A DNA stretch of 35,562 nt, taken from positions 1 through 35,562 of the forward strand of contig PWGO01000160.1 in assembly GCA_003554525.1 (NCBI GenBank), given 5' to 3'. This DNA comes from Syntrophomonadaceae bacterium. GTDB taxonomy: Bacteria > Bacillota > Dethiobacteria > DTU022 > PWGO01. Below the pieces are notes generated by a model that ran no database searches, had not been told where the DNA came from, and was given only the letters and a program-made list of their open reading frames with translations. Below are positions 42 to 23,919 of the stretch, one piece after another; the first letter of the stretch is position 1, and the number at the start of each line of letters is the position of its first letter. The position numbers and the translations under genes were made by a program.

Positions 42-110
42 ATCAATCAGGTGGTTATAACTTAAAGGGTGGGCTCTTTTACGCACAAAACTTCCGAATG
101 ATCCCAATAC

Positions 111-214
111 GAACCGTCCCCTTGTCGCAGTCGCAGAAGCCCGAAGGGGCGACAACAGAACCGTCCCCTTGTCGCAGAACCGTCCCCTTGTCGCAGAACC
201 GTCCCCTTGTCGCA
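111..214. repeat. 19-bp repeat array, GAACCGTCCCCTTGTCGCA
   Basis: Four identical copies of GAACCGTCCCCTTGTCGCA lie at 111-129, 158-176, 177-195 and 196-214. The last three are head to tail with no spacer. The 28 bases between copies one and two hold a GTCGC/GGCGAC pairing segment. A diverged, palindromic relative (GAACCGTCCCC followed by CTGGCGCAG) is found at 15096-15179, so this is an interspersed REP-like family rather than a local accident. No transposase is present in the window. Confidence 0.85.
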
Positions 215-1080: not shown

Positions 1081-1163
1081 CTAGTGCGTTAAGTTGACAA
1101 GCTGCTTTAGATCGTGATACTTTTAGTTCAATCGAGTAAAATCCTATCTGTAGAGGTGCGTTT

Positions 1164-2360
1164 ATGCTCCAAAAAAAAAATAGAGGTATGGGTAAGACAG
1201 TAGATACTGTCGTGGGTAATAATACCAGAATTACCGGGAGTTTTTTTGCCACAGGAGCGGTTAGGATTGATGGAACAGTGCAGTCTGAGAACGGTAGTTA
1301 TGAAGACATAGAAATATCTACTTCTGAAGAACTGATTGTAGGAGAAAAGGGAGAGATATATGCAAATACCCGGGGGAAAAAAATAATTGTAGCTGGAAAA
1401 GTATTTGGGACCCTGGAATGCTCTGAATGCCTGGAATTATTATCTACCGGACAGGTAATAGGTACGGTAAAAACCAAGAGGATTTATGTGGAAAGCGGGG
1501 CTGTGTTTGAAGGTTATTGCAGCATGAGTGAAACTGGCGACAGCACCCGGGAAGAGATCGAAGAAGTCGAAGAACAGTCTGCAGTTCCCGAGGAAGATAC
1601 TTCCGGGCATGAGCAATACGAGCCGGTAGAAGAGGTGTTAAACCGGGAAGAAAGGCTGGAAAGCGATGCAGCTTATACTACAGACACGGAAATAAAAATA
1701 GATATAGAAATAGAAAATGAGATATTTGCTAAAGAAGTTGAAGAAGCTGAAGAAGCTGAAGAAGCTAAAGAAGAAGAGGAATCTGCAGTCCGTGGGGAGC
1801 AGTCCAAGGAGGGTGAGGAGTTAGAGGCACAGGAAACCCCATCTCTTTATTCAGGGGAGGGCGACCTGGTGCAGGAGGGGGAAAATCACCGGGAGCAGGA
1901 AATAGAATTGGAAAGTAGTGCCGGGGAGGAACAAAAAAATGAAGACCCGGTGCAGGAAATAAAGCTACAGGAAGAGAAACACTTACAGGAAGAACAAAAA
2001 AGGAGCAATTTTGTACAGGAATATAAACCTGAAGATTCTAAATCTGAACTGGAGATAGAAGAAAAAGAAACAGAAGATACAAATGGAAATCCGGATATAG
2101 ACCACGACGAAACCAAAAAGCTTTTTCTTGCAGAATTCCAGTTTAACGGCGATTTGGAAATAGAAAAATGTCCAAACGGGAAGGTCCCGGTTAAAAGCAA
2201 GTACAGGCCCAAGAAAAAATTTAGCGAAGCATATTTTAAAAAATCGGAATGTAAAGAATGCGAACTTAAGTACAACTGCCTGGTAAGGGAACACAAAAAA
2301 GACATGGTTTTGCGGATTCCCAAACAATTTATCCGGCAGGTCCAGAAGCCATTGTCTTAG
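1164..2360 (+). CDS. Bactofilin with long acidic tail and C-terminal Cys motif
   Basis: Residues 8-125 are a bactofilin (DUF583) domain: TVVGNNTRITGSFF, then VRIDGTVQ, repeated short beta-helix rungs with IVAGKVFGTLEC, and ending near VFEGYCSM. Bactofilins polymerise without nucleotide into membrane-associated filaments. Most family members are short (roughly 100-200 residues); this one has 398. Residues 130-315 are an unusually Glu-rich, low-complexity linker. The last 64 residues are basic and carry C336, C363, C366 and C372 (C-x26-C-x2-C-x5-C). That pattern resembles the cysteine segment of IS1182-type transposases (CPxGK, then FS, CxxC and C). ATG 1164 follows GAGGTG at seven bases; ATG 1188 is a weaker alternative. 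An actin-like gene lies 67 bases downstream, probably in the same transcript. Bactofilin assignment is strong; the tail's role is unknown. Confidence 0.85.
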   Translation: MLQKKNRGMGKTVDTVVGNNTRITGSFFATGAVRIDGTVQSENGSYEDIEISTSEELIVGEKGEIYANTRGKKIIVAGKVFGTLECSECLELLSTGQVIGTVKTKRIYVESGAVFEGYCSMSETGDSTREEIEEVEEQSAVPEEDTSGHEQYEPVEEVLNREERLESDAAYTTDTEIKIDIEIENEIFAKEVEEAEEAEEAKEEEESAVRGEQSKEGEELEAQETPSLYSGEGDLVQEGENHREQEIELESSAGEEQKNEDPVQEIKLQEEKHLQEEQKRSNFVQEYKPEDSKSELEIEEKETEDTNGNPDIDHDETKKLFLAEFQFNGDLEIEKCPNGKVPVKSKYRPKKKFSEAYFKKSECKECELKYNCLVREHKKDMVLRIPKQFIRQVQKPLS

Positions 2361-2427
2361 CTGAAGGGTCAGGTTTTTTTTTGGTTTTTAATAATTATAT
2401 TTTTTGGAAAGGGGGTTTGCTTTAGAA

Positions 2428-3567
2428 ATGGAGCAGTGGGATTTGCGGGGAACTGAGGGACCTGATGATATATCAGAAGCTCCCGCCCAAGAAAACAGCG
2501 AACAGGCGGAAGAACAAGTAGAAAAACAAGTAGAAAAACTGGGCAAAGAGGAAGAACAGCAGTCTTCTGTAAGAAATGTCGGGGTAGACCTTGGCTACGG
2601 TTATGTCAAGTTTTTAGACGGTGAAAAAGAATACATGTTCCCCAGTATAGTAGGCTCAGGAGATGACATTCAATATAGAAGCGAAATGTTCCTGGAACCG
2701 GATCTGCTTAAAAACTTGCATATAGAAATTGGAAAGGAAACTTTTTTTGTAGGTGACCTGGCTATAAGGCAGAGTGAGATAGCCTCCAGGTCTTTAGATC
2801 AGGACAGGTCTAAAGACAAAAACTCGAAGGTTCTCATGTTAACTGTTTTAAGCCTTTTAACCAGTAAAGAAGATCAGCAGTTTAATCTGGTCACAGGATT
2901 GCCCACCAACTACTACGGGGCTTACAAAGATGACTGGAGAAACTCTCTTCTGGGAAGTTATAAAACAAACATATGGAAAGATGGGAAGTTAAAAGAATGC
3001 TCTTTTCAAATTAAAAACGCCAGGATCGTACCCCAGCCTTTTGGCACCTTGTTTAATCTGTTGCTTAACCATGAGGGTGAGGTAGTAGATCAAGAGCTCT
3101 CGAAAGAAATGGTGGGTATTGTGGATATTGGTTTCAAAACTACGGATATGGCTGTAGCTAACCATACCGAGTTTATTGACAGGTTGAGCTTTTCTACGGT
3201 TACGGCCTTAAGTACCATTTATCGCCTGGTAGGTGAAAGGCTTCGCAGGGAGTACAAAATAGATAAGGAAGACCATCACCTGGATGATTGCATTAGCAGT
3301 AGAACTATAAAAATTGCCGGTGAAGAACATGATATTTCTTCCTGGGTTGACAGCGCATTCAGGATGGTTGCCGGTAAAATTGCTACGGAGATAGAATCCA
3401 GGTGGGATTTCAAGCAGTTTGACAGGATACTGCTTACCGGTGGAGGAGGGGAAGCGTTGAGCCCCTATATAAAAAACAGCTTTCCCAACATGGTACTGGT
3501 TGAAGATGCGCAGGTGGCTAACGTAAAAGGGTATCAAAAGCTTGCTTGTAAAATTTTTGCGGAATAA
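2428..3567 (+). CDS. ParM/StbA-like actin-family ATPase with acidic N-terminal extension
   Basis: An actin-fold ATPase of the ParM/Alp type. It has phosphate-1 loop VGVDLGYGYVK (about residues 52-61 from the chosen start), GLPTNYY typical of the Alp N-terminal domain, phosphate-2 loop VGIVDIGFKTTD (about 230-240) and adenosine motif LLTGGGGEAL (about 335-344). The first 45 residues are an extra Glu/Gln-rich segment repeating EEQVEKQVEK, similar in character to the acidic tail of the bactofilin encoded just upstream. ATG 2428 is preferred: AAGGGGG ends 12 bases before it, while the open frame's earlier TTG at 2404 has no ribosome binding site. ParM proteins normally segregate plasmids, but no centromere-like repeats or adaptor gene are seen. 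Pairing with a bactofilin suggests a chromosomal cytoskeletal role (inference). Confidence 0.8.
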   Translation: MEQWDLRGTEGPDDISEAPAQENSEQAEEQVEKQVEKLGKEEEQQSSVRNVGVDLGYGYVKFLDGEKEYMFPSIVGSGDDIQYRSEMFLEPDLLKNLHIEIGKETFFVGDLAIRQSEIASRSLDQDRSKDKNSKVLMLTVLSLLTSKEDQQFNLVTGLPTNYYGAYKDDWRNSLLGSYKTNIWKDGKLKECSFQIKNARIVPQPFGTLFNLLLNHEGEVVDQELSKEMVGIVDIGFKTTDMAVANHTEFIDRLSFSTVTALSTIYRLVGERLRREYKIDKEDHHLDDCISSRTIKIAGEEHDISSWVDSAFRMVAGKIATEIESRWDFKQFDRILLTGGGGEALSPYIKNSFPNMVLVEDAQVANVKGYQKLACKIFAE

Positions 3568-3601: not shown

Positions 3602-3632
3602 AAACCCCTGATTTCGGGGGTTTTTTGTTTTT
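3602..3632 (+). terminator. Rho-independent terminator after the actin-like gene
   Basis: AAACCCC pairs with GGGGTTT across a short loop and is followed by a T-rich run, 34 bases after the stop codon. It closes the bactofilin-actin unit. Confidence 0.85.
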
Positions 3633-3754: not shown

Positions 3755-5095
3755 TTAATTTCCGAAGCAGTTGGTGCAGGAAGTAGTTCCGAATTTTATA
3801 ATAGCTCCACAGTTACTGCATATTATACCAGTTCTTTCCGTTACGGGTTTGACCGGTGTCTTATCCGCGATTTCTTCAGGGCTTTTTGTTTCACGGTCTT
3901 CCCACTTAATAATTTTTTCTTTCTTTTCCAGTGGCTCAGGAGGTTTTAGTTGTTCCGGTAATGTTTCTTTACTTGATATTTCTTCTTTGTCTTCCCCTGA
4001 TGCGGCCGGGGGTTTGAGTTCCACGGCATCTTTAACCTCTGCTGTCCCGGCTTCAACTGAAATAATTCTTGTTTCTTTAATAAAACTATCCAGTTCAATT
4101 GACTGTGCGCGGCTGTATGTAAACCAGTACTCCAGGTTTTTCACCAGGTTGGCACCCAAATTTACCATTAAGCTGTTTTCTTCAACTTTTACCGCTTCAT
4201 AGAAAAGATTTTCCAGGGTGATTTCATTAAAAAACCTTGAACTGGTTTTCCCGGTTTCAGCTGGTTCAGCTGGTTCAGCTTCTTCTGTTTTTTTGGTTTT
4301 ATCCCGGAGCTCTTTTATGGCTGCCACTTCTTCTTTTTGGAAAACATCTTTTTCATCTTCATCTGTCTCTTCACTTGTTTTGGCGTTTATGCTGTCGTTT
4401 GCCGTAAAGGCTAAAGGTTCTGCAGGTGGATCTCCTGTTTTAGTTGAATTGATAGACCCGGTCGGGTTATTTACCGGGGTGGGTCGGGCAGGAGTGGAAT
4501 TGCTGCGCAGTATTTCTGCGGTTTCTTTTAATTCAACAGGTTGTGTGAGAGTTTCTTTAGCAACCGTGTTTTCGGGGTTTTGTATTTCCAGATTAGCACT
4601 GCGGGTGTAAGTTACAGTTTCTGTACTGCGCCTGTCTATCACCTGTATGGTATCCCTGGGATAATTATGTAATTTAATAAACATTATTACTAACAAATAA
4701 AAAAACGCGGCCCAGAATATAACCGGATATAGCCAGTCGTAATCTCCCAGGTATGGTACTATCAGGCCCCTGTAAGCTATGTAAGCAAGAACCACGGATA
4801 TAAGGTATACCAGGTATTTAAATAGCAAGCCTGAACGGGGCATTGCATCTGTAGACAGTATGTTGTTTTTTTCAATAACTTCACCTGTTTTACACAACAA
4901 ATCAATTAAGATGATTAGTATTACAGCTGTTACCAGCTGGTAAAGGTTAAACCGGAACGGCAGATCTATCCGGGCCAGATCATGGAAAAAAAGTACGGCT
5001 GTTCCCTGGGCCAAAAGCAATAAAATAATAGCCGAACTGATTTTAACTATGTAAGATCTTACTTGCATTTCACTGTTTTTAAGGTTTGTATTCAT
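3755..5095 (-). CDS. Four-TM membrane protein with C-terminal zinc ribbon, function unknown
   Basis: I do not recognise a named family. Four hydrophobic segments lie at about residues 15-38, 50-68, 91-113 and 121-141. A long Thr/Glu/Pro-rich, probably disordered region follows (150-290). A short folded-looking block (about 290-350) contains ITLENLFYEAVKVEEN and LVKNLEYWFTY. The extreme C-terminus is a zinc ribbon, C426-x2-C429-x10-C440-x2-C443, in the form CSNCGAIIKFG. The upstream neighbour ends in nearly the same ribbon (CSNCGAPLKYG) with identical spacing. ATG 5095 follows AAAGGAAG. It is the last gene of a three-gene operon, 34 bases after the regulator gene, so a membrane partner of that regulator is a reasonable guess. 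Long Glu/Lys linkers make this and the bactofilin similar in style. Confidence 0.7.
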   Translation of the reverse strand: MNTNLKNSEMQVRSYIVKISSAIILLLLAQGTAVLFFHDLARIDLPFRFNLYQLVTAVILIILIDLLCKTGEVIEKNNILSTDAMPRSGLLFKYLVYLISVVLAYIAYRGLIVPYLGDYDWLYPVIFWAAFFYLLVIMFIKLHNYPRDTIQVIDRRSTETVTYTRSANLEIQNPENTVAKETLTQPVELKETAEILRSNSTPARPTPVNNPTGSINSTKTGDPPAEPLAFTANDSINAKTSEETDEDEKDVFQKEEVAAIKELRDKTKKTEEAEPAEPAETGKTSSRFFNEITLENLFYEAVKVEENSLMVNLGANLVKNLEYWFTYSRAQSIELDSFIKETRIISVEAGTAEVKDAVELKPPAASGEDKEEISSKETLPEQLKPPEPLEKKEKIIKWEDRETKSPEEIADKTPVKPVTERTGIICSNCGAIIKFGTTSCTNCFGN

Positions 5096-5129: not shown

Positions 5130-6158
5130 TTAATCAAATTTGTGGCTTGAAAAACAGGCGGTGCAGAATACGGAGCCATACTTCAGCGGTGCGCCGCAAT
5201 TACTGCATCTGTTTGGACTATTATTATTTTCCCCGGTTTGCAAACTTTTCTGTGTTTTTGCCGGTTGCTCTTTTTGGGTTTCTTTTGGCCGGTTTAATTG
5301 TGATGCGGCAGAGACACGGTGGTTTTCCGGGTTAACCCCTGCCGGAGATTTAATTTTTTCTTTCTCCTCTTCTTCCTGATGGTGAGAAACTACATCTTCT
5401 ATATTGAAATCATCCAGCTTGTTTAATTTGTTTAAGACAGTAGTGTGGGAAACCCCCAGAGCTTTGGCTGCTTTTCGTATGCTCTGGTAGTTTTTAAGGG
5501 CGTGGGTCAAGACTTCTTTTTCCAGGAGACCAATTATTTCGGACAAAGGCTTTCCTTCTTTCAGGTAATTTTCTACTGGTAATTGTGCAGAGTTATTTCC
5601 TGTTTTGACAAGGTTTATCAGGACATATTTTTCGTTATTATTAAGCAAAACAGGGATAGAGCTTAAATTATAGTTGCAGGCAGGGTCCCCAAGCTGCACC
5701 TTGTTTTTCTTCGTGCGGTCTTCCTGAAGACTTTTATTGACGGTTTCTAAAATATCGGGTGGAATAACACTGTGGAGATGGTTCCCGGCGGCATTATCGG
5801 GCAAGTTTAACAAATTTTTAGCCGGCGGGTTATAGCGGGTTATGTATTTAAACTGGTCTATTATTAGCACAGGAGAATCCAGTCCGTTGACAACAACTTC
5901 CAGGGAATTGTCTTCTGTTTTATTTTCTGCTGTTTCAATTTTTTCTACTTTAACCACCCCAGGAAGCATTTCCAGGGCTTTAATTATGCTATCTTCGTTG
6001 TCAGCAGACTTGTGATAAATAGACAAATAAATACATGATTCTTCGGCTTTATAAAATGTAAGCTGGCTGTTTTTAAGATATATAATTCTTGCTATATCTA
6101 AAACCATTCCTTCTTTGTTTTCGTTTTCAATTTTGAGGTTTGTAACTGGCTGCTCCAT
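5130..6158 (-). CDS. TyrR-like ACT-PAS-HTH regulator lacking the AAA+ domain, with C-terminal zinc ribbon
   Basis: Residues 8-75 resemble the ACT domain of TyrR. Residues 85-188 look like a PAS domain (SPVLIIDQFKYITRYNPPAK, then IPPDI and SSIPVL). Residues 203-248 are a Fis/TyrR-type helix-turn-helix: EKEVLTHALKNYQSIRKAA, then LGVSHTTVLNKLNKL. TyrR-family proteins normally have a sigma-54-type AAA+ ATPase between PAS and HTH; here the two are only about 15 residues apart and no Walker motif exists. After an acidic linker the protein ends in a zinc ribbon (C318, C321, C332, C335) matching the ribbon of the next gene product. Middle gene of a minus-strand operon. It probably binds DNA and a small ligand, but cannot act as a sigma-54 activator. 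Domain calls are by eye. Confidence 0.75.
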   Translation of the reverse strand: MEQPVTNLKIENENKEGMVLDIARIIYLKNSQLTFYKAEESCIYLSIYHKSADNEDSIIKALEMLPGVVKVEKIETAENKTEDNSLEVVVNGLDSPVLIIDQFKYITRYNPPAKNLLNLPDNAAGNHLHSVIPPDILETVNKSLQEDRTKKNKVQLGDPACNYNLSSIPVLLNNNEKYVLINLVKTGNNSAQLPVENYLKEGKPLSEIIGLLEKEVLTHALKNYQSIRKAAKALGVSHTTVLNKLNKLDDFNIEDVVSHHQEEEEKEKIKSPAGVNPENHRVSAASQLNRPKETQKEQPAKTQKSLQTGENNNSPNRCSNCGAPLKYGSVFCTACFSSHKFD

Positions 6159-17775: not shown

Positions 17776-18980
17776 TTATTGGTAGACTATAACTTTGTTT
17801 CTACCGGATTCTTTGGCGGCATACAGTGCCCGGTCGGCCTGCCGGATCAGCTCCTGTGTTTCCAATATTTGCCCTGGGCGGGAAGCGGATATACCCGCGC
17901 TGATTTTTATTTTAAGTTTAAGTTCGCCGTGGTACATATTTTTTTGTTCCACTTTTTGCCGGATATTTTCTGCTGTTAGTTTGGCCTCTTCATACGATTT
18001 TTCCGCTGATCTCCCCTGCACGACTTGTTTCCGCTTCTACCAGCTTGCTTTTGTGCAGGTGGTTTGCAGGGCCGTACCTGGCCCACAGTTTAAGTTTTTT
18101 CCTGGATCGTTCGATTTTTTCCCTTTGAGTTTTTTGTTCTCGCGGAGGAAGATGCTCCAACTCCTGGAGCATGTTTAAAGTGCGGTAAAAATAATATTGA
18201 GAAAACGGGTATAGAGCCGCTATAGCGTCCAAATAATGCCGGGCCGATTTTTCATTTTCAGCAGCCTCGTTTGTGTTTCCGAAGAGATAACAGAGCATCA
18301 TTTTGTAGGTATAGGCCAAACATAACCCTACCCTGTCGTTTAGTTTTTGGTGCACGGGGAGCATTTTATTTTCGCTGTACGCAGTGCCGTCAAGGTGGGT
18401 GGGGTCTTTGGAATGTCCTGCCAGATTATGTACTATCTGCATAAGCAACAGGGCATAGTGGTAAGGCAGCCGTTGTTTGAATTTCGTTTATTAGAGCCGA
18501 TTTCCCTACCCCCGGTGCACCGGTAACCGCGGTAACTGCCGGTTTCCCCTGTTCCATCATTTGCTCGAATCCTAAGATTAGCTCATTCATTTCTTCTTCT
18601 CGCCCTATTAGTTTGTAAGGGAGATTAAATTTTAAAGAAACATCATTGCTGCCTAGCGGGAAAGGTAATACCGTGTTTTTTTCTTTCAACTGTTCTTTGC
18701 AGTGCTGCAGGTCCGCCATAACACCAAAGGCATTCTGGTAGCGTTCTTCGGCCATCTTGGATAACAGCTTCATTACCAGGTCGGAAAGCGGCCCGGGTAT
18801 GCTGCTGTTTACTTCGCATGGAAGGATCGGTTGTTTTGCAATATGGGAATGTATAATTTCCATAGGATCATCGGAGATAAATCTTCCAGAACCAAGGCTA
18901 TACAAAACCTTGTTAATATGAAGGAGGGTAAACATAAACACAAGTGCTGCATTATTGTATGTGTGGTTTGAGTCTATCAC
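17776..18980 (-). pseudogene. Decayed tandem copy of the kinase-ATPase-GGDEF gene
   Basis: Three frames on the minus strand match successive parts of the intact protein encoded at 18991-23919. 18426-18980 matches its residues about 203-345 (DPMEIIHSHIA, LSDLVMKLLSKMAEERYQ, TGAPGVGKSALINEI). 17990-18480 matches about 1045-1190 in the repeat region (GLYPFSLYYFYRTLN-like ALYPFSQYYFYRTLN, KLKLWARYGP). 17776-18021 matches the last 75 residues of GGDEF (LIRQADRALYAAKESGRN). Two internal deletions, both out of frame, removed about 700 and 380 codons, and the kinase N-lobe is missing. It begins 10 bases after the intact gene's stop, so it arose by tandem duplication. No GGEEF motif remains, so it cannot make c-di-GMP. 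Confidence 0.9.
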
Positions 18981-18990
18981 AAATGTTCAA

Positions 18991-21900
18991 TTAACGATAG
19001 ATTTCTACCCTGTTTCTCCCTGTTTCTTTAGCCGTATAAAGGGCCCTGTCGGCTTGCCGGATTAGTTCTGTGGGTTCAATGGCCTGGTTCAGCCGGGTTG
19101 CGGTTAAGCCAATACTTATAGTGATATTTAACCTCTGGTTTTCGTGGTAAATGGTCTTATTTTCAACTTCCTTACGTATGGATTCTGCTATTTCTTTTGC
19201 TTCCGGGGGGGAGAATCCCGGGATAATTATAGTAAATTCTTCTCCCCCGTAACGGCATACCAGGTTTTTATCCGGGACTTGGTGTATAAGAATTTTGGCC
19301 AGTTCTTTTAAAACGGTGTCCCCGGCCTGATGCCCGTAAGTGTCGTTAACCGATTTAAAGTGATCTATATCCAGCATTAACAGGGTTACCACGTGCCTGC
19401 TGGTCCAGGCATTTTTTATCTCTTTTTCCAGGCAATAGTGGAAGTAGCGGTGGTTGATCAGGCCGGTAAGCCCGTCGCGCCGGGCCATCTCGAATAACTT
19501 GGCGTTTTCTATGGAAATAGCGGCCTGGGAAGACAGCACCTGCAGTAAAGCCAGGCGCTCGGGGGTAAAAACCCCGGTGGAAAGGTTGTTTTCCAGGTAG
19601 ACCACCCCGCTCATTTCGTTCTTCCTGCGGATGGGAGCACATAGTACCGATTTTATATTATTATCCCGGATATACGGGTCGGAAGCAAAACGCTCATCGG
19701 AGGGGGCATCGTCTAAGATTACGTTCTCCATGGTTTTGTAAACGTAAGATACTATATTAGTAGGCAGGTTATGGTAGGATTCAAAAGGCGTGGGTTGCAG
19801 AACCCGGACGCTGTTGTGGGTATCACTTTCTGCTTCCACGTACAGTTCTCCTTCTTCTTCAATAAAAATAATTCCACGCTCCGCCCCGGCGTTTTCAATG
19901 CCAATTTGCATCAAACTGCTTAATAGGCTGTCCATGGCAATTTCCCCGGAAACGGCCTGTAGCGACTTGATCACTGTCGTCATGTCCAGTTTCAGGTAAC
20001 TTTCTCCCGGGTTAGAAATAGTAGAAACAGAAAACAGGGTAGATAAACCGGGACCCTCGGTATCCCAGGAAGTTAATTCCTGGCCGTCCATTATTTCGTT
20101 CCAGTTTTCTTTAAGCTGTTCCACCTTAGAGGAGGCTCCCCACCGGGAGTAACACCGGCTAGCCCTGGAGATGTAGAAAGCAGCCAAATCGTGAAGGTTT
20201 CTTTCCCAGTAGTATAGCGCAGTTAATTCACAGGCCAGGGCTTCATCCTGCAAGAAGCCGTTTTTTTGGGCTCCCGAAATGGAATTATGGTATAAATCTT
20301 CCGCCTGGAGGTAATTTGATTGGGATTTTTGTATTTCCGCTTCTACCAGGTCGCTTTTGTGCTGGTGATTTTGTGGCCCGTGTTTGGCCCAAAGTCTTAG
20401 CTTTTTTTGAGAGCGCTCTATTTTCTTCCATTCTTCTTTCTTCTGCCGCGGGGGAAAGCTGTTTATTATCCTCAGTTTGTTTAAAGTGCGATAAAAGTAA
20501 TACAGGGAAAATGGGTAAAGCCCGGAAATACTATTAAGGTAGCGTCGGGCTAATTTTTCATTTTTGGCTGCTTCAGGGGTTTTTCCGAAAATGTAACAGA
20601 CCATCTGCTTGTAAATATAGGTGATAGCCAAACCGGCCATGTCGTTATACTTTTGATGCAAGGGTATCATTTCTTCTTCGTGGTAGCGGGGCCCGTTCAG
20701 TACCTGTGGTTCTTCCGGGCCGGTGGTCAGGTTGTATATTACCTGCAGAAGCATTAAAGCATAGTTTGAAGGGACCTGCTGGTTATACTTTATAAATACC
20801 TGGTAGTAAGAATCAATTTCTTCATACAGGTGGTTTAAATCTTTTCCCGAAGCAAAACCCTGGAGGGTTAACTGTACTGCCGAATAAGCGGCGTGTTCCA
20901 GGTCACCAAGTTCAAAGCCCTGGTAGTACACCTCCTCCAGTTTTTTGTAAGGGATTCGCAGGTGATCTCTCCAGTGTAAAGTCATGGCATTAACCATATA
21001 GTCCGTTTTTATTTCTTCAGCTTGCAGCTGTTTTTTTAATTGCAGGGCCAGGTCTCCAAAGCGAAACGCTTCTTGCAACCGGCTCATAGAGAAAAGCACT
21101 ACGGTATAGCAGGCCAGCCAGTAAGGGGTATGCACGTTTAATCCTGAGTTTATGGATAAACGGACCATCTTTAAGGTAAGAGTAGTAACCTCCCGGGTAT
21201 ATCCGCCCACGTAGAGAGCAAAAACAGCGTTGGTGGCAATCCTGATTGCAGCGATATGATAAGGGTCTTTCATCTTCGGAAGCTCCAGGATGTTTTGATT
21301 GCTTTTGCCCTGTAGTGCCTTTTGTGTCAGGTGCAGTTCCCAGGCAATTCTTGCCCCGGAAATTTTGCGAGGATGCTTTATGCCCAGGGAATCAAGCACA
21401 TTAAAGGTGTGGTTTGCCGCTTCTTGTAGCCTGCCCTGGAAATGGTATCCTTGAATTTGTACTTCGTAGACGTCAATACAATCCAGCTGGGAAACAGCGT
21501 TTTTTGTTACCACCCTGATGTAGTGATCCATATTGGAAAAATCGCCGTTGAGGTAAGCGGCGCGGGCTGCTTCAGTGTAGAGCTTCAAGGCCAGATCATA
21601 GTGTTGTTGCCAGCATGATTCCGGGTTAAGGAGGCTTATCCCGGTAACCAGGTATTCCAGTGAAGAAGAAAAGGCGGCCGAATCTCGCGCTTTTTCTCCG
21701 GCGATCAGGTTTAACCGGGCCAGCTCTTCCAATTTAAACTCTTCTTTTGTTTCCTCTATCTCCTCTCTTCCTGTATTAATCTGGTTTACTATGTAAAATA
21801 TTTTTTGGGAAAGCTCTTCCTTAGGCGTGCAGTTGTAAATATATCTTCCTATCCTGTAGTGCGTTTTCTTTTTGTCTTTTTCATCCATTTGTGAATAGGC

Positions 21901-23919
21901 TGCCTCCTGGATGCGGTCATGCAGGAAATAACACATATCTTTGTCAAAGTAGATAAGGCCGTCATCCAGGGCGGGATTCAAGTCCTGAAGGATAGGCTCT
22001 ATGGGTTTATCCATAATCACAGAAACAGTTTCCAGATCAAACCTGTTGCCCATACAGGCTCCTGCTTTAAGTGCTTCCCTGGTAGGTTCCGGAAATTCGA
22101 AAATTTTTCCGGACATTAGTTCCACAACGTTGTCGGTAACGTGCAGGTTTTGAATTTTATCCTCGTACCATATCCACCCTTTTACGGGATCCAGCTCCAG
22201 CAGATTCTTGTGATAAAGATTTTTTAAAAACTGGTTAACAAAAAAGGGATTACCCCTGGTTTTAGAATAAACCAGCTCGGTTAGTGAACTAACTGCTTCT
22301 TCTTCAAGCCGCAGGAAATCGGCAATAAGGTTATTTACTTTTTCCCTGGACAATGGCTGCAGGTCAAGCTTTTTTATTTCCATTTCGCTGGTTTCCAGCT
22401 GGTAAAGAGTGCGGACCAGGGGGTGGCTTTCTTCTACTTCGTTGTTGCGGTAAGCAAGCAGAAGCCAGAGGTGTCCTTTTTCCATGTTGGAAAGTAGTTT
22501 TTCCAGGAAAAGCAGGCTCGCCGTGTCCGCCCACTGCAGATCATCCAGGAAAAGCACCAGCGGATGTGAGTGTTCCGTAAATACCTTTATAAAATTTATA
22601 AACACATGGTTAAAGCGGTTACGGGCCGCTTCCGGGTCTAGCTCCGGTATTTCGGGCTGCGGCCCGATAATATATTCCAGTGTGGGTATTACCTCGGTAA
22701 TCACTTTTCCGCTGGAGCCCAGCACTTCTTGAATTTTAATTTTCCATGCCTCGGAATGCTCCCTGGGTTCAGCCAGGAGTTGGGATATTAGCCCCTTAAA
22801 AGCCTGGATCATTGCGTTGTAGGGTACATCTCGCCTGAATTGCTCATATTTGCCGGTGATGAAATATCCCCGGCTGGCGGTTACCGGTTTATAGATTTCG
22901 TTTATCAGGGCTGATTTCCCTACTCCCGGTTGGCCGGTTACTACCGTGGTAACCGGTTTCCCCTGCTCCATCATGCATTCAAAACCTTCCATAAGCCGAG
23001 AAATTTCTGTTTCGCGCCCTATAAGCTTATAAGGTATGTTGAACTTCAGGGATATATCTTTAGTTGCCAGCAAAAAATTATCTATGGCACCGTTGTTACT
23101 CAGCTGCTCTTTGCAGTATTGCAGGTCAGCCATGACACCGAAAGCGCTCTGGTATCGTTCTTCGGCCATTTTGGATAAAAGCTTCATTACCAGGTCGGAA
23201 AGAGGACGGGGAATCTCGGGGTTTATATCACGGGGAGGAACCGGTTGCCTGGCTATATGGGAATGGATGATTTCCATTGGATCCTGGGAATAAAAAGGAG
23301 TGGTGCCGGTTAGCAGCTGGTAAAAAGTAATCCCGAGGGCGTAGAGGTCGGTCCTGTAATCTATAGCCCGGTTTATGCGCCCGGTCTGTTCCGGTGCCAT
23401 ATACAGCAGAGTCCCGGAAATAACTTCAGGGTTGTAGATCTCTTCGTGTTCGTGAGTAATAAGGTGCGAAATGCCGAAGTCGGTGATTTTGCACTTGCTC
23501 CATTCTTTGCCAATCAGGATGTTAGCCGGTTTGATATCTTTATGTATTACCCCGCTTTTATGTAGTTTTCCCAGTGTTTCTGAAAGGCGGAGGGCTATAT
23601 CCAGAAAAGTTTCTGTACTTAATTCCTGGTTGTCTAAACATTCCTGTAAAGAAAGTGCGTTGAAATCTTCCAGCACCAGGGCTATGCTGTCTTCGTAGTT
23701 TATCAAATCATAGGTTTTAATAATACCTTCAATATCCAGGTCTTTAATAATTTCATATTCTTGCTTAAACCTTGCTATGTCTGAAGAAGAAGGGGAATGA
23801 GAACGCATAAGCTTGATTACCACCGGTTCGCCATCTTCAATTCTGTTAGCCCGGTAGATCATGGAATGCCTGGTGTCTTTTATTTTTTCCTTTATGGAAT
23901 AATTCCCTATGGTTTTCAT
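18991..23919 (-). CDS. Giant Ser/Thr kinase - AAA/STAND ATPase - helical repeat - GAF - GGDEF protein
   Basis: 1642 residues. Kinase domain 1-275: ATP lysine in VVIK (36), HKDIKPAN (D128), DFG (145-149) and GTLLYMAPEQ, all apparently active. ATPase 298-about 640: GQPGVGKSA (329-337) and Walker B LVLFLDDLQWAD (454-465), as in large STAND-type regulators. A long helical, probably TPR-like region spans about 700-1270. GAF (about 1300-1475) includes NIKSVLCAPIRR and GVVYLENN. GGDEF 1482-1642 has RYGGEEF with an intact active motif but PDKN where the RxxD inhibitory site would be, so it may lack product feedback. Similar kinase-ATPase-GAF proteins often end in a histidine kinase; here the output is c-di-GMP. 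ATG 23919 follows AAGGTGGT. Monocistronic before the duplication downstream. Confidence 0.93.
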   Translation of the reverse strand: MKTIGNYSIKEKIKDTRHSMIYRANRIEDGEPVVIKLMRSHSPSSSDIARFKQEYEIIKDLDIEGIIKTYDLINYEDSIALVLEDFNALSLQECLDNQELSTETFLDIALRLSETLGKLHKSGVIHKDIKPANILIGKEWSKCKITDFGISHLITHEHEEIYNPEVISGTLLYMAPEQTGRINRAIDYRTDLYALGITFYQLLTGTTPFYSQDPMEIIHSHIARQPVPPRDINPEIPRPLSDLVMKLLSKMAEERYQSAFGVMADLQYCKEQLSNNGAIDNFLLATKDISLKFNIPYKLIGRETEISRLMEGFECMMEQGKPVTTVVTGQPGVGKSALINEIYKPVTASRGYFITGKYEQFRRDVPYNAMIQAFKGLISQLLAEPREHSEAWKIKIQEVLGSSGKVITEVIPTLEYIIGPQPEIPELDPEAARNRFNHVFINFIKVFTEHSHPLVLFLDDLQWADTASLLFLEKLLSNMEKGHLWLLLAYRNNEVEESHPLVRTLYQLETSEMEIKKLDLQPLSREKVNNLIADFLRLEEEAVSSLTELVYSKTRGNPFFVNQFLKNLYHKNLLELDPVKGWIWYEDKIQNLHVTDNVVELMSGKIFEFPEPTREALKAGACMGNRFDLETVSVIMDKPIEPILQDLNPALDDGLIYFDKDMCYFLHDRIQEAAYSQMDEKDKKKTHYRIGRYIYNCTPKEELSQKIFYIVNQINTGREEIEETKEEFKLEELARLNLIAGEKARDSAAFSSSLEYLVTGISLLNPESCWQQHYDLALKLYTEAARAAYLNGDFSNMDHYIRVVTKNAVSQLDCIDVYEVQIQGYHFQGRLQEAANHTFNVLDSLGIKHPRKISGARIAWELHLTQKALQGKSNQNILELPKMKDPYHIAAIRIATNAVFALYVGGYTREVTTLTLKMVRLSINSGLNVHTPYWLACYTVVLFSMSRLQEAFRFGDLALQLKKQLQAEEIKTDYMVNAMTLHWRDHLRIPYKKLEEVYYQGFELGDLEHAAYSAVQLTLQGFASGKDLNHLYEEIDSYYQVFIKYNQQVPSNYALMLLQVIYNLTTGPEEPQVLNGPRYHEEEMIPLHQKYNDMAGLAITYIYKQMVCYIFGKTPEAAKNEKLARRYLNSISGLYPFSLYYFYRTLNKLRIINSFPPRQKKEEWKKIERSQKKLRLWAKHGPQNHQHKSDLVEAEIQKSQSNYLQAEDLYHNSISGAQKNGFLQDEALACELTALYYWERNLHDLAAFYISRASRCYSRWGASSKVEQLKENWNEIMDGQELTSWDTEGPGLSTLFSVSTISNPGESYLKLDMTTVIKSLQAVSGEIAMDSLLSSLMQIGIENAGAERGIIFIEEEGELYVEAESDTHNSVRVLQPTPFESYHNLPTNIVSYVYKTMENVILDDAPSDERFASDPYIRDNNIKSVLCAPIRRKNEMSGVVYLENNLSTGVFTPERLALLQVLSSQAAISIENAKLFEMARRDGLTGLINHRYFHYCLEKEIKNAWTSRHVVTLLMLDIDHFKSVNDTYGHQAGDTVLKELAKILIHQVPDKNLVCRYGGEEFTIIIPGFSPPEAKEIAESIRKEVENKTIYHENQRLNITISIGLTATRLNQAIEPTELIRQADRALYTAKETGRNRVEIYR

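What the first reader, a model, noticed from the sequence alone, without database searches (positions are those of the whole stretch)
1164..3567. Bactofilin-actin gene pair, both with acidic disordered extensions
A nucleotide-independent filament protein (bactofilin) and a ParM-like actin sit in one apparent operon with one terminator. Each carries an added Glu-rich segment: the bactofilin at its C-side, the actin at its N-terminus. ParM-type actins are usually plasmid segregation factors, yet no partition adaptor or centromere repeat is present. This could be a two-filament cytoskeletal system not of the known partition kind.
Basis: partly seen in the sequence, partly recalled or inferred. 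Interest (0 to 1): 0.68.

Follow-up and report, generated by a model that had tools for sequence, protein, structure and literature searches.

The report
Actin gene paired with bactofilin gene
A bacterial chromosome carries, side by side, genes for a ParM-type actin and a bactofilin (a static scaffold protein), and a sister branch of the same actin family is almost always found in one operon with a bactofilin across many Bacillota, which points to a two-filament cytoskeleton that I could not find described.

Summary
The gene pair is real: a bactofilin (1164-2360) followed, 67 nt later, by a ParM-type actin (2428-3567), with one strong terminator after both and no ParR nearby. The best lead lies outside the window. 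A well-supported sister clade of this actin ("clade B") sits directly upstream of a bactofilin in 24 of 26 tree rows, and in 13 of 13 loci in an evenly drawn sample of 399 genomes. Those bactofilins share a C-terminal F-x3-[F/Y/I] motif (27/33 actin-adjacent, 0/59 other bactofilins). I found no description of this pairing. The window is not a plain member. Its actin belongs to sister clade A, where no other locus has a bactofilin neighbour. Its bactofilin is of the ordinary BacA class, lies upstream, lacks the motif, and ends in a Cys4 segment homologous to IS1182-like transposases. The acidic extensions do not mark a partnership: related clade-A actins have the N-terminal one without a bactofilin, and 22% of sampled proteins of this genome carry an acidic stretch. 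Most likely this is a chromosomal, ParR-less ParM-type actin joined independently to a bactofilin scaffold (about 0.5); chance adjacency remains possible.

The parts
1164..2360 (+). Bactofilin gene, 398 aa, BacA class, unusual long C-terminal part
   Evidence: Pfam Bactofilin E 7e-20; phmmer nearest are ordinary bactofilins (best E 1e-22), well before actin-linked ones (best E 2e-10); AlphaFold beta-helix residues 13-121, mostly pLDDT above 90
1164..1532 (+). Bactofilin polymerisation core (residues 1-123)
   Evidence: Pfam match 15-119; confident beta-helix model
1533..2111 (+). Acidic linker (about residues 124-316)
   Evidence: 36% D+E, 9% K+R over residues 124-325; mostly pLDDT below 50, with two predicted helices 180-209 and 262-284; 9-nt repeat coding EEA-like units at 1728-1788
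2112..2357 (+). Cys4 segment homologous to the segment in IS1182-like transposases (residues 317-398)
   Evidence: 46% identity over residues 317-390 to four 554-aa frames in G211, E 1e-15; 31-37% to other such frames in relatives; two of these carry Pfam DDE_Tnp_1_6, E 2e-15 and 3e-13; weak Pfam/NCBIfam matches of the window protein itself
2361..2427 (+). Intergenic gap; only a weak 4-bp hairpin before a U run
   Evidence: z -0.09; no + strand terminator reported here
2428..3567 (+). ParM-type chromosomal actin (clade A), 379 aa from ATG; the ORF could start at TTG 2404
   Evidence: ALP_N E 9e-37; PHROG 691 E 2e-74; model pLDDT 86.8, best PDB folds pCBH ParM and Dh-cParM1; within a 24-row set supported 98/95
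2428..2577 (+). Acidic N-terminal extension of the actin (50 aa)
   Evidence: 30% D+E; pLDDT below 50 for residues 1-22 and a helix at 24-42; comparable extensions in clade-A relatives L083, L085, L086, L180, L182-L187
3602..3623 (+). Intrinsic terminator after the actin
   Evidence: 9-bp stem then T run; -13.4 kcal/mol, z -2.76
1094..1121 (+). Promoter-like site before the bactofilin (10 of 12 consensus)
   Evidence: consensus match only
109..214 (+). Four copies of a 21-nt direct repeat (spacing 47, 19, 19); role unknown, possibly unrelated
   Evidence: of the 16-nt core, 4 of the 5 genome copies lie here, none in other relatives

Best explanation
The window encodes a chromosomal ParM-type actin without ParR or an adjacent centromere, in a probable two-gene operon with a bactofilin. 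Inferred working: the bactofilin forms a static, nucleotide-independent filament through its beta-helix core, and its long flexible tail recruits or anchors the nucleotide-driven actin filament. The bactofilin would thus take the adaptor role that ParR has in plasmid systems, and the pair would more likely position an envelope or other cellular structure than segregate a plasmid. Shown: the two genes, their folds, the tandem layout, the absence of a ParR gene, and a conserved actin-bactofilin gene pair in the sister actin clade, in six sampled genomes followed by an M23 cell-wall peptidase gene. Inferred: co-transcription, physical interaction, function, and that this lineage acquired its bactofilin separately from clade B.
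For: Tandem genes, short gap, terminator only after the second. Actin fold closest to ParMs, including chromosomal Dh-cParM1 and CorM. No ParR-like ORF. Sister clade B: 24 of 26 tree rows with a bactofilin directly downstream, clade support 100/100; evenly drawn sample 13/13; in the reciprocal search the 13 best bactofilin hits all lie beside these actins. C-terminal motif F-x3-[FYI] in 27/33 actin-adjacent and 0/59 other bactofilins. M23 peptidase next to the clade-B pair in G098, G206, G207, G390, G411 and G117. Precedents: a bactofilin's disordered C-terminal tail recruits the segregation ATPase ParA through PadC in Myxococcus (PMC5703909); a ParM-derived chromosomal actin, FcmB, controls cell shape (PMC12645912).
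Against: The window actin is in clade A, where no other locus looked at has a bactofilin neighbour. A single clade of all bactofilin-linked actins including the window is rejected (AU p 2e-50). The window bactofilin is BacA class, lies upstream instead of downstream, and lacks the clade-B C-terminal motif. The pair is missing from the two same-family genomes at this site. Two acidic extensions would repel each other rather than bind. No interaction or expression data.
Confidence: 0.5

Rival explanations
1. Chance neighbours: the clade-A actin works alone, or with a partner elsewhere, as in its relatives, and the bactofilin beside it is unrelated in function.
For: None of 27 named clade-A loci nor 16 sampled lower-scoring loci has a bactofilin neighbour. 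The locus lies in a lineage-specific stretch left of a conserved block. The window bactofilin is not of the actin-linked type. The pair was picked because it looked odd, so selection favours chance cases.
Against: Same strand, 67-nt gap, shared terminator. With two bactofilins in a genome of about 2,000 genes, a given actin would have one next to it by chance in only about 0.2% of cases (my estimate). The sister clade keeps the same kind of partnership.
Confidence: 0.27
2. A derived partition-type system: the bactofilin with its transposase-derived Cys4 segment binds DNA, possibly the repeats at 109-214, and the actin moves that DNA.
For: Four direct repeats about 1 kb upstream, near-unique to this place in the genome; the Cys4 segment comes from a DNA-acting transposase family; ParM-type fold.
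Against: nadE lies between the repeats and the pair; no plasmid or viral hallmark gene was seen among the genes examined, and the contig shares the codY-rdgB block with same-family genomes; the repeats were not found in viral contigs; no RHH adaptor gene seen.
Confidence: 0.07
3. A decaying or accidental arrangement: transposase debris fused to the end of a duplicated bactofilin gene, of little function, beside an actin of phage-like origin.
For: The C-terminal segment was found in no other bactofilin. The nearest phage relative is the lytic-phage SPO1 actin gp27.9 (31%, E 3e-49).
Against: Both frames are intact; all four Cys of the segment are kept; 46% identity at best speaks against a recent fusion; the actin keeps the conserved DxGxG, D-x-G and GGG motifs.
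Confidence: 0.13

Closest known systems
Chromosome-encoded ParMs (cParM), e.g. Dh-cParM1 of Desulfitobacterium hafniense (PMC12270681, PDB 8x1i)
   Same: ParM fold on a chromosome of Bacillota (TM 0.75 to the model); the paper notes that some cassettes appear to lack a cParR
   Different: Dh-cParM1 has a conserved downstream cParR; here a bactofilin stands beside the actin; the paper's main text does not mention bactofilin
FcmB/FcmC of Nostoc (PMC12645912) and CorM/CorR of Anabaena (PDB 9rmi)
   Same: ParM-type actins of cyanobacteria; FcmB is chromosomal, ParM-derived and acts in cell shape with a neighbouring partner gene; distant sequence match (NCBIfam FcmB E 2e-10) and CorM fold match
   Different: FcmB score is far below the family cut-off (40 of 300 bits); FcmB's partner is FcmC and CorM was solved with CorR, not a bactofilin
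BacNOP-PadC-ParABS of Myxococcus xanthus (PMC5703909)
   Same: A bactofilin scaffold whose long disordered C-terminal tail recruits a segregation ATPase
   Different: The ATPase is ParA (Walker type), recruited through the adaptor PadC; not an actin
Bactofilin with M23 peptidase, e.g. in Hyphomonas neptunium (PMC10945521)
   Same: Six sampled genomes have an M23 peptidase gene after the clade-B actin-bactofilin pair
   Different: That system as described in the abstract has no ParM-type actin partner; the window pair has no adjacent M23 gene
SPO1-like phage actin gp27.9 (PHROG 691)
   Same: Closest relatives in the phage collection, 31% identity over 86% of the protein
   Different: Encoded by lytic phages; neighbouring genes there were not examined for a bactofilin

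Membership tests
ParM-type actin | Actin fold with ALP_N/ParM domains and nucleotide-site motifs | tested here: met
   Pfam and PHROG matches, fold search, invariant DxGxG, D-x-G and GGG columns
ParMRC partition system | Adjacent ParR (ribbon-helix-helix) gene | tested here: not met
   No ORF of 30 aa or more beside the actin that looks like ParR; neighbours are the bactofilin and an unrelated gene on the other strand
ParMRC partition system | parC repeats beside the genes | tested here: inconclusive
   Repeats at 109-214 but separated by nadE; no repeat array next to the actin
Bactofilin family | Central DUF583/Bactofilin beta-helix flanked by flexible ends | tested here: met
   Pfam E 7e-20, above cut-off; confident beta-helix model
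Bactofilin family | Nucleotide-independent polymerisation | not testable with these tools
   Needs purified protein
Conserved actin-bactofilin operon of clade B (described here) | Actin inside clade B | tested here: not met
   Window actin is in clade A (24-row set 98/95); AU test rejects one clade of all linked actins
Conserved actin-bactofilin operon of clade B (described here) | Bactofilin directly downstream of the actin | tested here: not met
   Window bactofilin is upstream
Conserved actin-bactofilin operon of clade B (described here) | Bactofilin C-terminus F-x3-[FYI] | tested here: not met
   Window protein ends FIRQVQKPLS
FcmB morphology actin | NCBIfam NF052678 above its cut-off | tested here: not met
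   40 bits against a cut-off of 300
IS1182 transposase | Full DDE transposase | tested here: not met
   Only the Cys4 segment is present

The most novel reading that the evidence does not exclude
Bacillota have a two-filament cytoskeleton in which a chromosomal ParM-type actin uses a bactofilin, through its C-terminal tail, as its adaptor in place of ParR, tied to cell-wall remodelling in part of the clade. The partnership arose at least twice, in clade B and separately in the window's lineage, where the bactofilin gained a transposase-derived Cys4 segment.
Probability: 0.35. Interest if true: 0.82.

Novelty: new variant of a known kind. Interest (0 to 1): 0.62.

Why it matters
Actins that left plasmid partition for other jobs are only beginning to be described, and so far with ParR-like or similar partners. 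A conserved actin-bactofilin operon would tie together two filament classes, one dynamic and one static, that are normally studied apart, and it gives a short C-terminal peptide motif that can be tested for binding directly. The window shows how far such a pair can drift, including a bactofilin that has taken in a piece of a transposase.

Tried and rejected
Acidic extensions as a mark of partnership: rejected, since related clade-A actins have the N-terminal extension without a bactofilin and acidic stretches are common in this genome. Window pair as a plain member of the clade-B operon: rejected by the actin tree, the bactofilin comparison, gene order and C-terminus. Misbinned contig: not supported, since porA is 69% identical to both same-family genomes and the codY-rdgB block is conserved. 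Conserved local synteny around nadE: the other genomes searched have only distant matches, mostly in longer NadE frames. The regulator gene at 5130-6158 was not found in ten relatives, a search without a positive control. Other bactofilins with the Cys4 segment: none among the hits in 98 of 399 genomes. Repeats in viral contigs: none. Clade-B actin on plasmids: none at E 1e-30. The Cys4 segment modelled poorly (pLDDT mostly below 50). My first motif pattern was mis-specified and was corrected. Literature searches found no paper linking a bactofilin to a ParM-type actin as partners, but subscription papers and preprints are largely not held.

Full report
What is in the window. On the + strand, after a short NadE gene (260-1015), lie a 398-aa bactofilin (1164-2360) and a ParM-type actin (ORF 2404-3567; likely start ATG 2428, 379 aa). 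Pfam finds Bactofilin at residues 15-119 (E 7e-20), and ALP_N (E 9e-37) with an actin-like C-terminal domain in the second protein. PHROG 691, 'partition protein', matches the whole actin (E 2e-74). A promoter-like site stands at 1094-1121 and a strong terminator at 3602-3623. In the 67-nt gap there is a U run behind a 4-bp hairpin that folds no better than shuffled sequence. Co-transcription is therefore likely but inferred.

The actin. The AlphaFold model is good (mean pLDDT 86.8). The best solved folds are pCBH ParM, chromosomal Dh-cParM1, pSK41 ParM, Ta0583 and, among the first ten, CorM. No ParR-like ORF of 30 aa or more lies beside it. The closest plasmid relatives listed are only 25-27% identical; the closest phage relatives are SPO1-type actins (31%, E 3e-49).

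The bactofilin. Residues 13-121 model as a confident beta-helix. Residues 124-325 are acidic (36% D+E) and mostly low in confidence, with two predicted helices. Residues 317-390 are 46% identical to four 554-aa frames in genome G211 (E 1e-15), and the same part matched ten similar places in relatives, two of which carry the DDE_Tnp_1_6 domain. The C-terminus is thus homologous to the Cys4 segment of IS1182-like transposases. None of the other bactofilins found in a search of 399 genomes matched this part.

Relatives of the actin. A scan of named genomes gave 80 loci. A bactofilin model run on all their ORFs found a bactofilin in 25 of them, directly downstream of the actin and on the same strand. 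A maximum-likelihood tree puts 24 of these in one clade of 26 rows with support 100/100 ('clade B'; the 25th, L152, has a broken actin frame and was left out); the rows without a bactofilin are L111 and L127. The window lies in the sister group ('clade A', 28 rows, 90/93; 24-row set 98/95), of which no other member has a bactofilin neighbour. Holding all bactofilin-linked actins together as one clade is rejected (AU p 2e-50).

Independent check. In 399 genomes drawn evenly from the phylum, 13 fetched loci score as clade B and all 13 have the downstream bactofilin; 16 lower-scoring loci other than the window have none within up to 1.5 kb, some flanks being cut by contig ends. In the reverse direction, the 13 best hits of the clade-B bactofilin profile all lie next to a clade-B actin. 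Actin-adjacent bactofilins end in F-x3-[F/Y/I] in 27 of 33 cases and other bactofilins in 0 of 59. In six genomes an M23 peptidase gene follows. In several loci a very large protein kinase gene, homologous to the window gene at 18991-23919, neighbours the pair.

Where the window differs. Its bactofilin is nearest to ordinary bactofilins (best E 1e-22) and much less like the clade-B ones (best E 2e-10, low-resolution tree). It lies upstream, lacks the C-terminal motif, and is absent with the actin from the matching site of the two same-family genomes, which keep the neighbouring block from codY to rdgB. The contig does belong to this family. Acidic N-terminal extensions occur in related clade-A actins that have no bactofilin beside them.

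Judgement. The sister-clade pattern makes an actin-bactofilin partnership a real biological theme in Bacillota. For the window the same partnership is plausible and would be a separate acquisition, but it is a single case, and chance adjacency is not excluded. A bactofilin tail recruiting a segregation ATPase is known from Myxococcus (PMC5703909), and ParM-type actins on chromosomes, some with roles outside plasmid partition, are known (PMC12270681; PMC12645912). I found no paper joining a ParM-type actin with a bactofilin, within the limits of the library held.

Noticed in passing
window 109-214: Four copies of CAGAACCGTCCCCTTGTCGCA-like repeats; the 16-nt core has one more copy elsewhere in the genome (C76) and none in the other relatives searched.
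   Followed up: partly
window 18426-23919 (-): A 1642-aa protein kinase/AAA/GAF/GGDEF protein and next to it a shorter frame similar to it; homologues neighbour several clade-B actin-bactofilin operons.
   Followed up: partly
window 3755-5095 (-) and 5130-6158 (-): Two neighbouring genes end in similar zinc-ribbon sequences (CSNCGA..FG..C..CF-like) after low-complexity stretches, though the rest of the proteins differ.
   Followed up: no
L130 and L132: Clade-B loci with two bactofilin genes in tandem after the actin, the second short and of another type.
   Followed up: no
L018/L152 (G003, same order as the window): A clade-B-type bactofilin beside an actin whose frame is in two pieces in this assembly.
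   Followed up: no
L087 and L090: Clade-A actins close to ParB/Noc-like genes.
   Followed up: no
L078 (G000:C66): A second, distant ParM-type actin (25% identity) in the window's genome, followed by a MerR/resolvase-type gene.
   Followed up: partly
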